Shown here: piece by piece, positions 18,401 to 57,381 of the stretch
Layout of the letters: each line of letters opens with the position of its first letter
Numbering within the stretch: the stretch's first letter is position 1
IMG/VR virus record: IMGVR_UViG_3300050821_007134
Location: 1 to 64,000 of that record
Length of the DNA: 64,000 nt
Origin: a virus
Direction: 5' to 3' (one strand)
Position numbers and translations under genes: made by a program
Notes under the pieces: generated by a model
Seen by the model: only the letters and a program-made list of their open reading frames with translations
Database searches by the model: none
Told to the model about the DNA's origin: nothing

Positions 18401-18616
18401 TTATCCTCGTTTCAAACGATCCAGGGTTCCGTACTCAGAAGTCAAATCTCGAATAAAAAAGGATGTTTGACTCAGAGCCTTCTTATTCAATTTTCTAACT
18501 TCTACGGTCACTTCTTCTAGGGAATCGTAGATGTGTCCCAGAGATCTATAAGTCTGACTGAAACCCATCATCTCCACTATATCCCATCGCTCTTTCACTT
18601 GCTCGTTATTTTTCAC
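18401..18616 (-). CDS. Unknown helical protein, 71 aa
   Basis: Starts at GTG 18616 by GTGA overlap with the RNA ligase gene, so it is translated with it. The sequence is charged and helical with a possible coiled coil in the middle. No family is recognised. Confidence 0.75.
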   Translation of the reverse strand: MKNNEQVKERWDIVEMMGFSQTYRSLGHIYDSLEEVTVEVRKLNKKALSQTSFFIRDLTSEYGTLDRLKRG

Positions 18617-19695
18617 TTAGCCTCCAAAATTTTTAAATCATTGCCGTCCGGACGTATCTGTTTCATGACATACTTGGTCACAATATGATTTTTTCCTTCC
18701 AAAAGTGGGAACATGGCGGATTTATGTTTAACTTCGTTAGTATCTCGCAAGAATATCCCAACAGTTTTACGGCCCTCGGGACTTAAATCACGGGTAGGAA
18801 GCGTGCAAAAGTCTTGCTGGACTTCTTCCATCATAGCCACAAATTGTTTTTCTAGGGTCTCCACAATTGGCTCGAATTCCTTCTTAAACTCTTCTGGGAG
18901 CTGCGCAAGGTAGTCTTTTGGTACTTTGCCATCAACCATGGCTTCCCAGAAAGAAATTGGGGACATATGCGACAACATTTTCGCGATCCTAAGATACTCT
19001 TCACCTTTGATTTTGACGCGTAGCCCATTATCGAATCTAACCACGAAGCCTTCTTCGTCCTTAGGAAGTGATTTTTGAAGTTCGACCATATCCATAATGG
19101 AATACGAGAAAAGCTTAGCGTGTGGCATTCCTGTCTGTTCCGAAAATTGCAAAAGACTCATGGGATTAAATTCATGCCCACTTCCGGCGTCATAGGCGCC
19201 GATCAAAACTAATTTCTCTTGATCGCCATAATCCACAATAATTTTATTGGCAGGATAGATGATTTCCGCCAATAATGTAGTTGACGGAGAAATGGCGGAT
19301 AAATCATATTTCTTCAGTAATTCTGCGCCCTTTTGGGCTTGTTCTGAGTAGAAACTTCCTCTAGTTGCGATCTGCCACTGACCCTCGTAATTGAAGATGA
19401 TACCAAGAGATCCGTCAACCTTTTCGAAGGAAGTGTAATTCATTCCCATAGGAAGATTGGCCAAAAATGTCTCTTCCATCTCGCCTAAATTGAAGAACTT
19501 AGGGAATGGTTTCGCTATGACTCTGCCGGTACCTTTTTCTAAAATGAGACCTCTGGCCGCTCGGGTGTATTCGTTCCAATGGCGATCGAACGTGGTCTTT
19601 TCAGAATAACCGTAGAGTACAAGACCGTCCTTTTCGGATTTTCTAAGATAGCCCTCTTTGTAGAGTTCTTCAAATTTTTCAACGTCGTACAACAC
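18613..19695 (-). CDS. rnlA: RNA ligase 1 (T4 Rnl1 type)
   Basis: 360 aa, close to T4 Rnl1 (374). It joins 5'-phosphate to 3'-hydroxyl RNA ends using ATP. Nucleotidyltransferase motifs in order: KVDGSLG with the AMP-accepting Lys92, a TRGSF segment (motif Ia), EEGFVVRF (motif IV) and VKIKGEEY (motif V). The RAARGLILE segment before motif I is typical of the family. It lies two genes from the polynucleotide kinase/phosphatase, the same pair that repairs anticodon-cut tRNA in T4. It overlaps the small gene upstream by 17 bases. Confidence 0.92.
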   Translation of the reverse strand: MLYDVEKFEELYKEGYLRKSEKDGLVLYGYSEKTTFDRHWNEYTRAARGLILEKGTGRVIAKPFPKFFNLGEMEETFLANLPMGMNYTSFEKVDGSLGIIFNYEGQWQIATRGSFYSEQAQKGAELLKKYDLSAISPSTTLLAEIIYPANKIIVDYGDQEKLVLIGAYDAGSGHEFNPMSLLQFSEQTGMPHAKLFSYSIMDMVELQKSLPKDEEGFVVRFDNGLRVKIKGEEYLRIAKMLSHMSPISFWEAMVDGKVPKDYLAQLPEEFKKEFEPIVETLEKQFVAMMEEVQQDFCTLPTRDLSPEGRKTVGIFLRDTNEVKHKSAMFPLLEGKNHIVTKYVMKQIRPDGNDLKILEAK

Positions 19696-19843
19696 TTAAT
19701 GCTCCTAACACTTTCTTGGCGGCTTGCTTTTTATTTAAGCCCTTTTTAATCAACTTATCGAACTGTCTTCTTTGTTTTCGATTCATGTTGGCTAGCCTCA
19801 TCTCGAACTCTTCTTCTACGGTTAGAGGATAAGCCATTCCCAT
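19679..19843 (-). CDS. Small basic protein, 54 aa, between kinase and ligase
   Basis: Begins at ATG 19843 by TAATG overlap with the kinase/phosphatase gene and runs into the start of RNA ligase 1, so the three are coupled. It is very basic (RKQRRQFDKLIKKGLNKKQ) and helical, suitable for nucleic-acid or ribosome contact. A role in RNA repair is guessed only from context. Confidence 0.7.
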   Translation of the reverse strand: MGMAYPLTVEEEFEMRLANMNRKQRRQFDKLIKKGLNKKQAAKKVLGALSVVRR

Positions 19844-20712
19844 TAAAAATTACCCGGCGCAACTTGATGGCATTCGAAGCCTCTAGCACGCCACATATCA
19901 ACTACCTGATTGCGGTCATCGAGAATAAAGGCTGGTTTCCATTGAGTCAAAATATCAAAATCCAAGATAATTTCTTTGACGATTGAATCTGGGCGATGAT
20001 CTCCGGCTTCTCTCATTAATAAATGTGTATTAAATCCATGGGGCGTTACGTGTTTATAAAGCCAATCAATGGTTAATTGCTCATATTCTTTTGGGCGTCC
20101 GGAACAAAATACAATATCGTGATCTTTGGAGAATCTCTTGAGAATTTCTAGAACGTTATTATTCGGGGTATCATTGACCATTTCTAGAAAAAATTTATTC
20201 CAATCCTTTTTACCTTCTCGCTGAACGTAATGCTGCCTATGTTTTACATTACATAGAGTGCCATCAAGATCACAAATAATTGCAGGATGACAATAGCCCG
20301 ATTGCCCGCGCTTAGTAATCAAATCTGCTTCTGAAGCTTCTACCGGCTCGTATTTTGAGAAAAAGAATGCCAACACTCGCTTGGCGGTTTCCGTGTCTTT
20401 GATTGTAGGATGATTGGTTCTACGGCTCATTCTTTCCATACAAATGGAGTGCGATGCATAGAGAATTACAATTTCTGTGTGATAACCATTGGCTTTGGCG
20501 AATTCGATATATCTCTGGCGTTGATGATAAGAAAAACCCATTCGATCTACTACGATATCCTTCCCTAGATTAACGGCTTCTTCAAAAAGTCGAATGTGAT
20601 CTTTGCCTTGGTCATCCTGATTAATTCTTATCCAGCCAATCCCAACGCATTCTTGTGCAAAAGTACTTTTCCCAGAACCAGGAGGCCCGACTAGAACTAC
20701 AAGTTTTTTCAT
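19843..20712 (-). CDS. pseT: Polynucleotide kinase / 3'-phosphatase (T4 PseT type)
   Basis: 289 aa against 301 in T4. The N-terminal kinase has a P-loop GPPGSGKS (residues 9-16), a VDRMGFS segment and an arginine-rich lid (ERMSRR). The C-terminal phosphatase is a HAD domain with CDLDGTL (Asp148 and Asp150) and a later FILDD acidic pair. It phosphorylates 5'-OH and removes 3' or cyclic phosphates, preparing broken RNA for Rnl1. It overlaps the next upstream gene by ATGA. Domain order and length match the family without truncation. Confidence 0.92.
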   Translation of the reverse strand: MKKLVVLVGPPGSGKSTFAQECVGIGWIRINQDDQGKDHIRLFEEAVNLGKDIVVDRMGFSYHQRQRYIEFAKANGYHTEIVILYASHSICMERMSRRTNHPTIKDTETAKRVLAFFFSKYEPVEASEADLITKRGQSGYCHPAIICDLDGTLCNVKHRQHYVQREGKKDWNKFFLEMVNDTPNNNVLEILKRFSKDHDIVFCSGRPKEYEQLTIDWLYKHVTPHGFNTHLLMREAGDHRPDSIVKEIILDFDILTQWKPAFILDDRNQVVDMWRARGFECHQVAPGNF

Positions 20713-25696: not shown

Positions 25697-25893
25697 TTTA
25701 CGACTTTTAGGCCAGGCAGAAAGGCTAACCTTTCCAAACCGCATCCGGCCCACATTTCAAAGGGATCTTTAGAATTTTCCACCGGAACAGCGATTTTATT
25801 GTCGCCATATCTTATGACTTTCCATTGTCTTTTGCCGTCTGTAAGCTTGGTACCAACTCTGGCCGAATTTATGATCTGCGCTATCGTTTTCAT
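25693..25893 (-). CDS. Unknown protein, 66 aa
   Basis: Small, soluble and beta-like (GTKLTDGKRQWKVIRYGDNKIAV). Sits between RNA ligase 2-like and the membrane gene with ATGA overlaps on both sides. No family is recognised. Confidence 0.7.
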   Translation of the reverse strand: MKTIAQIINSARVGTKLTDGKRQWKVIRYGDNKIAVPVENSKDPFEMWAGCGLERLAFLPGLKVVK

Positions 25894-26717
25894 AAGTTAT
25901 GCTGCTCCGCAATAAAAGATTTAATAAATTTAAACAATTCGGCGCCTAGCGCCTTTCTAATAGCCTTCATCTCGTCATCGGTACCCGCAATCTGACCTTC
26001 CTTGATTAAATCGTTGGTATAGTCGGCGCAGATATTCTTAATGGAAGACGGGTACTCTCTTAAGTAGACCTCGTCACGCGACAGGAGCTTCTCCAGGCGC
26101 ATTGGCTGTAAAAGATGTGAAACATCAGGGCCAGCCGGTCTGGGCTCACCCTTGGGGCGATCAGGCTTTTTCCAGGCAGTTTCTTCGGCCTTAAAGACTT
26201 TTTTGAATCTTAAATCGGTGCCAAGCAAATGAACAACGATTCCTTCTGGCGACATGTATCCAGGAACCAAAGCTGAGCCCTTTTCACGCAGTGTGTTAAA
26301 AGCTTCATTGATAGCTTCAGAACTGAAGGGACCTTTATAAAGTAGGGGAACACCGACTACACGATTAGGAAGCGGCTTACCATCGATTCTGGCGATATTG
26401 AACACGGCGAAGACCTTTTCTGTAAGACCTTCACTAGAATTGATGCCAGGGCCTACCCATTCTCCGAACCAAGTACCTTCGCCAAGTTTTTCGATGAGTT
26501 CTGCTTTATTATCTTCAACGAATCGTGCAAAACCAAAATTGTCGTCGTCTACAGTAAGCCAGCGGTTACGGGAACCGGCTTTAATATCATAGGTTACTCT
26601 GTCCCCATCGGAAACTTGATAAATCAAAATTTGGGCATTCGTACCATGAAGTTTTTGGGTAATAGTGACAGCGGCCTTCCCGATTTGCTTTACATCGGGA
26701 AATGACTTAAATTCCAT
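25890..26717 (-). CDS. RNA ligase, Rnl2-like
   Basis: 275 aa. The ligase motifs are TQKLHGTN (AMP-accepting Lys22), EWVGPGI (motif III region), PEGIVVHL (motif IV) and FKKVFK (motif V). HGTN after the Lys is typical of Rnl2-like ligases of phages rather than Rnl1. It would seal nicked or broken RNA, possibly on a different substrate from Rnl1 at 18613. AAGGAG precedes the ATG. It stands apart from the PseT/Rnl1 pair and next to small unknowns. DNA ligation cannot be excluded but is less likely. Confidence 0.85.
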   Translation of the reverse strand: MEFKSFPDVKQIGKAAVTITQKLHGTNAQILIYQVSDGDRVTYDIKAGSRNRWLTVDDDNFGFARFVEDNKAELIEKLGEGTWFGEWVGPGINSSEGLTEKVFAVFNIARIDGKPLPNRVVGVPLLYKGPFSSEAINEAFNTLREKGSALVPGYMSPEGIVVHLLGTDLRFKKVFKAEETAWKKPDRPKGEPRPAGPDVSHLLQPMRLEKLLSRDEVYLREYPSSIKNICADYTNDLIKEGQIAGTDDEMKAIRKALGAELFKFIKSFIAEQHNL

Positions 26718-52670: not shown

Positions 52671-52951
52671 AAAAGAAAACTTATATGGTCGCTATACAAA
52701 GAACTTTTAAAGTCAGTGGTCTGGTATTCTACGAAGCACTCACTACAAGCGCTAAGGCCGCTGTAAAAGAAGCTAAGGCTCATTATAAAAAACACAAAAT
52801 CGAAATAGATGAGGAAATAGAAGAGGATGCTAAAGAAACTGGCGGTATTGGAGATGCAGGCGAAGCAGAGATATATTCTATTGGAATGGCCAGTCAATAC
52901 CACTCGGACGCCGAATGCAAGCTATGTAAAAAATCTAAGGAGGCCGCATGA
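52667..52951 (+). CDS. Unknown protein, 94 aa
   Basis: ATGA overlap. A basic start (KKKTYMVAIQRTFK) and acidic helix (EEIEEDAKETGG). Ends KEAA, with AAGGAGGC encoded for the zinc-peptidase gene. No family is recognised. Confidence 0.65.
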   Translation: MKKKTYMVAIQRTFKVSGLVFYEALTTSAKAAVKEAKAHYKKHKIEIDEEIEEDAKETGGIGDAGEAEIYSIGMASQYHSDAECKLCKKSKEAA

Positions 52952-53481
52952 ACACACGTAAATATGAAGAGGACCTTGGTCAATACTTCGAAAAGACTTT
53001 AGAGTTGGCCAAAGACTTAGGGGTACCGATCTTTTTCGGTAAACTCCCTAAGCCCTACACAAACACGACTTGCGGAGTGTACTTTAGCGAAACAAGAACC
53101 ATATGGATAAGCACTGATGTCTATAACATTGCAAGGCCAACTAAGGGACTCATTCATACAATAGTGCATGAGATTGTTCACTCCATTCAGCATATGCTGG
53201 ACGCCTATGAGTTCTTCAAATTGCCCGACGATTTGGACGCAATAAAGGCAAATGAGATTTGGAAAAGAACTGTAATGGAGGATGCTCCCTTATTTGAAGT
53301 TGAGGCCGACGAATTAGCTATTAAGATTTGTGAGTCTTGGGGAATGAACTACATGTCTGTGTATGGCTCCTATGCTTTAAGAAAAAACTTAAAGAAAAAG
53401 CACGAATTTTTGAATTATATGTGGAATGAAGCATATGAACTTGAAGTTGAACCATTAACTGAAATAAAGGAGGCCGCATGA
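52948..53481 (+). CDS. HExxH zinc metallopeptidase-like protein
   Basis: 177 aa. HEIVH (residues 74-78) in an IVHEIVHSIQHM helix, with Glu residues in FEVEADELA at 116-124 where gluzincin-type proteins place the third metal ligand. The arrangement resembles ImmA/IrrE-like or SprT-like domains. No signal peptide, so it probably acts in the cytoplasm, perhaps cleaving a host regulator. AAGGAGGC precedes the ATG. Confidence 0.75.
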   Translation: MNTRKYEEDLGQYFEKTLELAKDLGVPIFFGKLPKPYTNTTCGVYFSETRTIWISTDVYNIARPTKGLIHTIVHEIVHSIQHMLDAYEFFKLPDDLDAIKANEIWKRTVMEDAPLFEVEADELAIKICESWGMNYMSVYGSYALRKNLKKKHEFLNYMWNEAYELEVEPLTEIKEAA

Positions 53482-55345: not shown

Positions 55346-55566
55346 CAAGACAAGAAGCTAATAGAGAAATATTGAAACAATTGTCTAAAGCCGTTAAGGC
55401 CAACACAGATCAGCGTTTCGGCCAGCTATTGAGAAACCTTGGTCTAGTAACAGAGGTCCGTAACGGCGAAGGGACACCCACTCATTGGATAAATGAGTTC
55501 AATACTGAGAGTGTTGCTATACTGGAACGCATGACTAAAATTGAATGGGACAAGGAAGGAATATGA
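55342..55566 (+). CDS. Unknown helical protein, 74 aa
   Basis: Start at 55342 by ATGA overlap; the longer start at 55315 overlaps the zinc-ribbon gene. Helix, then a short beta hairpin. No family is recognised. Confidence 0.65.
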   Translation: MTRQEANREILKQLSKAVKANTDQRFGQLLRNLGLVTEVRNGEGTPTHWINEFNTESVAILERMTKIEWDKEGI

Positions 55567-56120
55567 GAGTTAAACTTGTAGGTATTCCTACAGAGCAACA
55601 CAAGGCTGCACGACAAGCTATTAAAATGGTTGACCGATTAGTCTGGGGCAATGAGATGAAGAAAAAAGTACAGAAAATTACCGTAATCAAAAATAGCAAA
55701 GGTAATCCTTTGGATGCCCCTATCTTCAAGGGCATATTAGACGTTTACAACCATAAAACCAAATCTTGCGTTCTTCATATCCAAGCGTTGATCGAAATGG
55801 GCGCGAACGATGATGGCAATTTGGCTTGGTCCATATGCCACGATCTTTCTCATGCATTTGATGTTGCTCACAAAAATCTAATCTTTGACACCAAAAACAA
55901 AACTTTGATTTATCTAGGAAAAACCTATGATTTTAAGAAACCGGCTGTCCATTTGATTGACGAAGAATTTGCAAAGAAAAACCGATATAGAGACTCTCGC
56001 TATTATGCTGCTCACGACTTCTATGAGCCCTGGGAAGTCAGACCTTTGATGGCTGCCGACGCGTGTATGGCCGAAATAAGAAGAAAAGACTGTCCAAATT
56101 TACTTAAGGAGGCCGCATAA
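55563..56120 (+). CDS. Unknown protein with HDxxH motif, 185 aa
   Basis: ATG 55563 overlaps the previous stop. SICHDLSHAFDVAH (residues 90-103) is an HDxxH metal-like motif resembling HExxH with Asp in place of Glu. No signal peptide. It directly precedes the Thg1 gene, which it overlaps by TAATG, and ends KEAA with AAGGAGGC as its SD. A hydrolase or adapter role is possible. Confidence 0.7.
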   Translation: MRVKLVGIPTEQHKAARQAIKMVDRLVWGNEMKKKVQKITVIKNSKGNPLDAPIFKGILDVYNHKTKSCVLHIQALIEMGANDDGNLAWSICHDLSHAFDVAHKNLIFDTKNKTLIYLGKTYDFKKPAVHLIDEEFAKKNRYRDSRYYAAHDFYEPWEVRPLMAADACMAEIRRKDCPNLLKEAA

Positions 56121-56923
56121 TGCACGACGAATTAGGTAACAGACTTAAGAATCAATACGAGGATAGAACGCGTTACTTCTTGCCTCGTCGAACCTACACA
56201 ATCATTCGAATTGATGGAAAGGCATTCCATACATTCGCTAAACATTGCGAAAAACCCTTTGATAAAGATTTGATGGCATTAATGGACACGACCGCAAGGG
56301 CTCTATGCAAGGAAATACAAGGTGCAAAATTTGCGTATGTTCAATCCGACGAAATAAGTATTCTTTTAACTGATTTTGAAACCATTCACACAGATGCATG
56401 GTTTGACGGCAATATACAAAAAATTGTATCTGTAGCTGCTTCTCTGGCTACGGCACGCTTTAACGAAGAACTTCAGTTATTGGCCGAAAGTCAAAGTGGA
56501 ACTAAAGACAGATTTGATTTAAGCGCAAGGCCTGCCATGTTCGACGCTAGAGTATTCACCATTCCAGACCCTACAGAAGTAGATAACTATTTCAGATGGA
56601 GGCAACAAGACGCAGTTCGTAATAGTATTCAGATGGCAGCTCGGGCCGCATTCACTCATAGCCAATGCATGGGCAAAAACTGCGATGAACTTCAGGAAAT
56701 GCTATTTACGGCGAAAAATATCAACTGGAGTGAATACTCAGCTGGAGAAAAGAACGGGCGAGTAGTTATTAAAGAGGCATATCTAGCCCCAATGATTCAT
56801 AGAAAAGATGGACCTCCTGGCAATGTAGCAAGGACTCGATGGGTAGCCCAGGGAGCCCCAATTTTCACTCAAGACACGGCGTTTCTTAAAACTAAAATTC
56901 CAGTTATGAGTCAGGAGGACTAA
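56120..56923 (+). CDS. Thg1-like tRNA 3'-5' polymerase
   Basis: 267 aa, typical for the family. Motifs: TIIRIDGKAFHTF (metal-binding Asp32 in IDGKAF), YVQSDEIS (Asp77, Glu78) and FDARVF with later WRQQDAVRNS and MAARAAFT. Thg1 and its relatives add nucleotides to the 5' end of tRNA in the 3'-5' direction, a repair activity in bacterial relatives. It would complement PseT and the RNA ligases here. It overlaps the HDxxH gene by TAATG and is followed by a TAATG start. All family landmarks are intact. Confidence 0.92.
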   Translation: MHDELGNRLKNQYEDRTRYFLPRRTYTIIRIDGKAFHTFAKHCEKPFDKDLMALMDTTARALCKEIQGAKFAYVQSDEISILLTDFETIHTDAWFDGNIQKIVSVAASLATARFNEELQLLAESQSGTKDRFDLSARPAMFDARVFTIPDPTEVDNYFRWRQQDAVRNSIQMAARAAFTHSQCMGKNCDELQEMLFTAKNINWSEYSAGEKNGRVVIKEAYLAPMIHRKDGPPGNVARTRWVAQGAPIFTQDTAFLKTKIPVMSQED

Positions 56924-57381
56924 TGATAAACAACGATACCAAAAAAGTAAAGATCGACGGAGCCATATCAATAGCTAGAAGTACGGGGTCCGATGGACAC
57001 TCTATTTCAATAAGTGTTGAGGATAGACTTTCAGGACTTCACGTTCTTGAATTAAGATTATCCATGGAAGAATTCGGAAACGTCGTTACGGGGTCCTCGG
57101 GAAAGACCCTTAGTGCGACAGTCTATCAGAATGAAAATTTAGGTAAAGAACAAGAAGTAGCAACGGCCCAGATTCCCTTAGAAGGTTTTGATATTGGTTA
57201 TGATGGCAAAGGCTGGGAGGCGTTCAATCAATTCGTAGAGACTTATGTTGAAGAGAAGTTCGGTTCGGAATGGAAAGCCGATCTGGATAAATCAAAAAAT
57301 CACTACAGAGTAATCAATGGTAAAACTCCAGAAACAAAAGGGAAACAGTATTATTCAGTTCACATTAGGAGATGGCTATGA
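56923..57381 (+). CDS. Unknown protein, 152 aa
   Basis: Soluble beta-rich body (SISVEDRLSGLHVLELRLS) and basic end. TAATG overlap with Thg1. No family is recognised; a link to RNA repair is only positional. Confidence 0.7.
   Translation: MINNDTKKVKIDGAISIARSTGSDGHSISISVEDRLSGLHVLELRLSMEEFGNVVTGSSGKTLSATVYQNENLGKEQEVATAQIPLEGFDIGYDGKGWEAFNQFVETYVEEKFGSEWKADLDKSKNHYRVINGKTPETKGKQYYSVHIRRWL

What the first reader, a model, noticed from the sequence alone, without database searches (positions are those of the whole stretch)
56120..56923. Phage-coded Thg1-like 3'-5' polymerase
All motifs of the Thg1 family are intact in a 267-a.a. phage protein. Thg1 in eukaryotes guanylates tRNA-His, while bacterial relatives repair truncated tRNA 5' ends. 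It follows a protein with an HDxxH metal-like motif (55563) and precedes an unknown of 152 aa, each coupled by overlapping starts.
Basis: partly seen in the sequence, partly recalled or inferred. Interest (0 to 1): 0.65.

Follow-up and report, generated by a model that had tools for sequence, protein, structure and literature searches.

The report
Phage Thg1-like RNA end-repair polymerase
A 171-kb phage carries an intact copy of a known reverse-direction (3'-to-5') RNA polymerase that probably rebuilds damaged 5' ends of the host's tRNAs; such genes are already described in many phages, so this is an ordinary new member, made a little more interesting because the phage has RNA-healing and -sealing enzymes but no tRNA genes of its own.

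Summary
The ORF at 56120-56923 (267 aa) matches Pfam Thg1 (1.9e-31), PHROG 4717 "tRNA-His guanylyltransferase" (4e-82) and the solved Bacillus thuringiensis Thg1-like protein, BtTLP (4.5e-55). Its AlphaFold model (pLDDT 87) is closest to BtTLP. All metal, activation and transfer residues are present. It is the bacterial/viral TLP type, not eukaryotic Thg1, so "5'-end repair polymerase" is the right reading and "tRNA-His guanylyltransferase" is misleading.

It is not new in kind. 127 phage records in the searched collection hold relatives, many annotated, and phage Thg1 has been discussed since 2010. The overlapping neighbours (191-aa HDxxH protein, 152-aa protein) are orphans with no conserved link to it.

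The informative context lies elsewhere. The record has a T4-type PNKP (19843-20712, -), an Rnl1-type RNA ligase (18613-19695, -) and a second RNA ligase (25890-26717, -), but no tRNA genes. Its substrate is therefore most likely host tRNA, or other cellular RNA, damaged during infection. That role is inferred, not shown.

In passing: a 724-aa protein at G000 80054-82228 (-), between virion genes, begins with an mCpol (CRISPR-polymerase-like) domain. It is unexplained and has no phage relatives found.

The parts
56120..56923 (+). Thg1-like protein (TLP), predicted 3'-5' RNA polymerase, 267 aa
56213..56218 (+). Metal-site codons D32-G33 (matches BtTLP D30)
   Evidence: Alignment to BtTLP; role of D30 from PMC3701042
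56345..56353 (+). S76-D77-E78 codons (match BtTLP S74, D75, E76: activation site and second metal ligand)
   Evidence: invariant in all 60 viral sequences compared
55545..56120 (+). Preceding orphan ORF, 191 aa, HDLSH motif; overlaps the Thg1 start by one base; no family, no relatives; not considered part of the function
   Evidence: (unusable model)
56923..57381 (+). Following orphan ORF, 152 aa; sub-threshold ComC beta-sandwich match only; not considered part of the function
19843..20712 (-). T4-type polynucleotide kinase/phosphatase (PNKP), kinase P-loop GPPGSGKS and phosphatase DLDGT motifs intact; likely partner in RNA end healing
18613..19695 (-). T4 RNA ligase 1-type ligase, motif KVDG at residues 92-95
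25890..26717 (-). Second RNA ligase (Pfam RNA_ligase), motif KLHG near residue 23
   Evidence: motif read directly in the sequence printed

Best explanation
The gene encodes a catalytically competent Thg1-like protein (TLP). It works by the known TLP mechanism: two Mg ions held by D32 and D77 let it activate a 5'-monophosphate RNA end with ATP or GTP, giving a 5'-App/Gpp end, and then let an incoming NTP's 3'-OH attack that end, so the strand grows 3'-to-5' against the paired strand as template. In this phage it most likely rebuilds missing 5' nucleotides in the acceptor stems of host tRNAs damaged during infection. It would work beside the phage's own PNKP, which supplies the 5'-phosphate, and its RNA ligases, which reseal nicks. 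Fold, family and intact active site are shown by computation. Polymerase activity, tRNA as substrate, host tRNA as the target and cooperation with PNKP/ligase are inferred.
For: Family and fold: (4kgm/4kgk BtTLP rank first, TM-score 0.86-0.89 normalised to the target). Active-site residues are present and invariant in 60 viral relatives, D32, S76, D77, E78, K101, R144 and R30 among them; their roles are from PMC3701042 and PMC6471195. TLP rather than Thg1: the region of the eukaryotic HINNLYN/N161 motif reads VRNSIQM, as in BtTLP (KNSISM), and the review states N161 is absent in TLPs. RNA-repair context: PNKP, Rnl1 and a second RNA ligase in the same genome, motifs intact. Same context elsewhere: in Vibrio phage D181 Thg1 lies with a nucleotidyltransferase, RNA ligase and PNK within 8 kb, in Mycobacterium phage Pound with PNK, in Brevundimonas phage Bambus with a CCA-adding enzyme. 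No tRNA genes in 171 kb, so the substrate cannot be a phage tRNA encoded in this record.
Against: No biochemical data exist for this protein or, in the papers found here, for any phage TLP. PNKP and ligases lie about 36 kb away on the other strand, and large phages often carry them anyway. Among 44 Thg1-bearing viral records only 8 have a PNKP match over cut-off and 10 an Rnl1 match; many records are fragments. In this phage's own terminase lineage Thg1+ records have PNKP in 3 of 3 near-full-length cases against 1 of 7 without Thg1 (one-sided p about 0.03), but the carriers are also the closer relatives, so the sample is not independent. A 5'-end-damaging host enzyme is not identified.
Confidence: 0.55

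Rival explanations
1. It is a true tRNA-His guanylyltransferase: it adds G-1 to tRNA-His, as its database name says.
For: Annotation label of PHROG 4717 and many phage records. For phage CBB, which has its own tRNA-His, authors proposed this role (PMC5259590). BtTLP can replace yeast Thg1 in vivo (PMC6471195).
Against: Bacteria and archaea encode position -1 in the gene (PMC2904730). TLPs prefer Watson-Crick-paired addition. This record has no tRNA genes. The protein groups with bacterial/viral TLPs, far from C. albicans Thg1.
Confidence: 0.1
2. Counter-defence proper: together with PNKP and ligase it reverses a specific host tRNA-cutting defence that removes nucleotides as well as cutting, either by refilling the 5' side or by supplying 5'-adenylylated ends to the ligase.
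For: PNKP/Rnl1 undo anticodon nucleases in T4 (established knowledge). An RNA-repair role against host defences was suggested for phage Thg1, and 5'-App supply for ligation was also suggested (PMC2904730). The phage has the full kit and no tRNA genes.
Against: Known anticodon nucleases cut in the unpaired loop, where a template-dependent TLP has no template. No host or matching defence is known. Only 3 of 10 near-full-length records of the lineage carry Thg1.
Confidence: 0.2
3. It acts on non-tRNA RNA 5' ends, for instance phage mRNA or small RNAs, as a general template-dependent 5' editing or capping-like enzyme.
For: TLPs are relaxed: BtTLP accepts an external guide oligonucleotide as template (PMC6471195).
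Against: The solved TLP-RNA complexes are with tRNA (5axm, 5axn). The recurrent neighbours are tRNA/RNA-repair enzymes.
Confidence: 0.1
4. Non-functional passenger or decayed gene.
For: Presence is sporadic among relatives.
Against: Full length, every catalytic residue kept, 45-59% identity to distant viral relatives with no stops, good ribosome site.
Confidence: 0.04

Closest known systems
Bacillus thuringiensis Thg1-like protein (BtTLP, PDB 4kgk/4kgm)
   Same: About 37-40% identity over nearly the whole length in the structural match, same fold, same catalytic residues (D30/D32, K43/K45, S74/S76, D75/D77, E76/E78, K99/K101, R131/R144)
   Different: A cellular protein; the phage protein has an insert around residues 120-138 and a longer C-terminal beta region; no activity data
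Phage proteins annotated tRNA-His guanylyltransferase (PHROG 4717), e.g. Bacillus phages Eldridge, BM15, Staphylococcus phage PMBT8
   Same: Same family, 42-46% identity over more than 95% of the length
   Different: Different phage lineages; the tree puts the window protein in an environmental-virus group, not with BtTLP/Eldridge/PMBT8
Eukaryotic Thg1 (C. albicans 3wbz, human 3otb)
   Same: Same fold and polymerase active site
   Different: 21-24% identity in the structure match; lacks the HINNLYN segment with the Thg1-specific activation Asn
T4-type phage tRNA repair (Pnkp + Rnl1)
   Same: The genome carries PNKP and an Rnl1-type ligase, close together on one strand
   Different: T4 lacks Thg1/TLP (from general knowledge); here a TLP is added, encoded about 36 kb away on the other strand

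Membership tests
Thg1-like protein (TLP) family | Profile match to Thg1 above curated cut-off | tested here: met
   Pfam PF04446 109.2 bits against a cut-off of 29.2
Thg1-like protein (TLP) family | Two metal-binding Asp plus adjacent Ser and Glu (BtTLP D30, D75, S74, E76) | tested here: met
   D32, D77, S76, E78, invariant in 60 viral sequences
Thg1-like protein (TLP) family | Nucleotidyl-transfer residues (Sc R27, K96, R133) and activation Lys (Sc K44) | tested here: met
   R30, K101, R144, K45 in the alignment. K45 is K or R in relatives
Thg1-like protein (TLP) family | Reverse-polymerase fold | tested here: met
   AF2 pLDDT 87.4, best PDB hit BtTLP, E 2e-24
Thg1-like protein (TLP) family | Template-dependent 3'-5' addition to 5'-truncated tRNA | not testable with these tools
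   Needs biochemistry
Eukaryotic-type Thg1 (G-1 addition) | Thg1-specific Asn (Sc N161) in HINNLYN | tested here: not met
   The aligned segment is VRNSIQM, as in BtTLP KNSISM; N161 is absent in TLPs
Eukaryotic-type Thg1 (G-1 addition) | Substrate tRNA-His lacking an encoded G-1 | tested here: inconclusive
   No phage tRNA of any kind in the record; host unknown
T4-type RNA repair kit in the same genome | PNKP with kinase and phosphatase domains, plus RNA ligase with KxxG | tested here: met
T4-type RNA repair kit in the same genome | Operon-level coupling of Thg1 with PNK/ligase | tested here: not met
   About 36 kb apart on opposite strands in this genome; coupling is seen in other phages

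The most novel reading that the evidence does not exclude
In this tRNA-free phage the TLP, PNKP and two RNA ligases form one counter-defence pathway that rebuilds host tRNAs from which a bacterial toxin has removed nucleotides, damage that PNKP plus ligase alone cannot mend.
Probability: 0.12. Interest if true: 0.6.

Novelty: new member of a known kind. Interest (0 to 1): 0.2.

Why it matters
On its own it adds one more phage TLP to more than a hundred already on record. Its value is as a clean test case. Because this phage has no tRNA genes, a phage TLP here cannot serve phage tRNAs, which separates 'maturing the phage's own tRNA' (proposed for phage CBB) from 'mending host RNA' (proposed in 2010), a question still untested in the papers found.

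Tried and rejected
1) Functional link to the overlapping neighbours: rejected as unsupported. No Pfam, PHROG or PDB match worth keeping, no viral relatives, not adjacent to Thg1 in relatives. The AF2 model of the 191-aa protein was unusable (pLDDT 36).

2) Maturation of a phage-coded tRNA: rejected for this record, no tRNA by ARAGORN or Rfam.

3) RtcB-type ligase: absent.

4) Non-catalytic clade: rejected.

5) General link between Thg1 and PNKP/Rnl1 across viruses: weak, and confounded by fragments and kinship.

6) The tree does not resolve the exact sister: the window row sits in an unstarred group (SH-aLRT 86) with L008, L043 and an archaeal-MAG contig, and long branches join the two distant references.

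Full report
The ORF at 56120-56923 is real and complete. It is preceded by a GGAGG ribosome site and joined to both flanking genes by one-base stop/start overlaps. It matches Pfam Thg1 at 1.9e-31, the phage family PHROG 4717 at 4.3e-82 over residues 1-256, and among solved structures first BtTLP (4kgk, 4.5e-55), then fungal and human Thg1 and an archaeal TLP.

Active site. Aligned to BtTLP, whose residues were tested or seen bound to nucleotide (PMC3701042), the phage protein has D32 (D30) and D77 (D75) for the metals, S76 and E78, K45 for ATP activation, and K101, R144 and R30 of the transfer site. Metal, Ser, Glu, Lys101, Arg144 and Arg30 positions are invariant in 60 viral sequences. The eukaryotic HINNLYN segment is replaced by VRNSIQM, as in BtTLP, so it is a TLP rather than a Thg1 in the strict sense. 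The AlphaFold model from 23 aligned viral sequences is confident (pLDDT 87.4, pTM 0.87), and its best structural matches are the eight BtTLP chains.

Relatives. 127 of 50,697 phage records hold a relative, none above 60% identity, many already annotated tRNA-His guanylyltransferase. 51 IMG/VR loci and at least 456 bacterial or archaeal contig stretches do too. In a 122-row tree the viral and cellular rows are intermixed, with at least 4 changes of the virus label forced by well-supported branches, which points to repeated exchange between viruses and cells (or to prophage and viral contigs binned with cells). The window protein lies in a mostly viral part, apart from the BtTLP/Eldridge/PMBT8 group, with its exact sister unresolved.

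Genome. The window is 64 kb of a 171,073-base virus record. Its terminase's best isolate match is Myxococcus phage Mx1 (169,621 bases, 38% identity), so the record may be near full length, though its ends are unresolved. Mx1 has no Thg1. No tRNA or tmRNA was found anywhere. A Pfam survey found a T4-type PNKP, an Rnl1-type ligase beside it and a second RNA ligase, all with intact motifs, and no RtcB. Only ORFs of roughly 90 aa or more were surveyed, and a few that cross fetched-piece borders or lie at the far end of the record were left out.

Context. The flanking 191-aa and 152-aa proteins have no detectable relatives in the viral collection with the close-relative search used. In the nearest Thg1-bearing relative (L057, 168,807 bases) Thg1 sits in the syntenic early region but beside a different gene. 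The useful context is therefore genomic rather than local. Elsewhere the association is local: Thg1, nucleotidyltransferase, RNA ligase and PNK within 8 kb in Vibrio phage D181, Thg1 and PNK in Mycobacterium phage Pound, CCA-adding enzyme and Thg1 in Brevundimonas phage Bambus. In the terminase lineage of this phage the three near-full-length Thg1 carriers all have PNKP, against one of seven without Thg1. The number is small and the carriers are closer kin. Thg1 does not track phage tRNA genes in this lineage: 0, 1 (marginal) and 18 tRNAs in the three carriers, and 9 in a non-carrier.

Interpretation. The chemistry follows from the family: 5'-end activation, then 3'-OH attack by an NTP, templated by the paired strand (PMC3701042, PMC6471195). 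PNKP would supply the 5'-phosphate that TLPs need, an idea already stated for bacterial operons (PMC2904730). With no tRNA genes of its own, the phage most likely uses the enzyme on host tRNAs or other cellular RNA. The 2010 paper already raised repair against host defences for phage 201phi2-1, and the 2021 jumbo-phage survey lists Thg1 among RNA-repair enzymes. The finding is therefore a sound new member of a known kind, with the role still untested.

Noticed in passing
G000 80054-82228 (-), = L002:16054-18228 (-), outside the window: A 724-aa protein between virion genes begins with an mCpol (minimal CRISPR polymerase) domain, Pfam 1.6e-13, with DGDN and GGGDE motifs; the rest is unassigned. 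mCpol is the synthase of the Panoptes anti-phage system (PMC12657218). No relatives in phages or viral contigs with the searches used.
   Followed up: partly
window 18613-20712 (-) and 25890-26717 (-): PNKP, Rnl1-type RNA ligase and a second RNA ligase in a phage without tRNA genes.
   Followed up: yes
window 4472-38069, exact ORF not assigned: One ORF other than the PNKP matches the HAD domain of 'Swiss Army Knife' RNA repair proteins (PF18143, 1.2e-26; not among the PNKP's own matches), perhaps a further RNA-repair gene.
   Followed up: no
G000 107973-109841 (-), = L004:3973-5841 (-): Phage-coded GroEL-like chaperonin, 622 aa (PHROG 5725 3.7e-82).
   Followed up: no
window 52948-53481 (+): 177-aa protein with HExxH and a weak, below-cut-off SprT-like match (0.0015), a possible zinc protease.
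   Followed up: no
window 38350-63102, exact ORF not assigned: One early-region ORF matches the PHB/PHA accumulation regulator DNA-binding domain (4.6e-13), hinting at a PHA-storing host.
   Followed up: no
G000 64001-102610, exact ORFs not assigned: Two ORFs match Ice_binding-like domains (best 4.1e-54).
   Followed up: no
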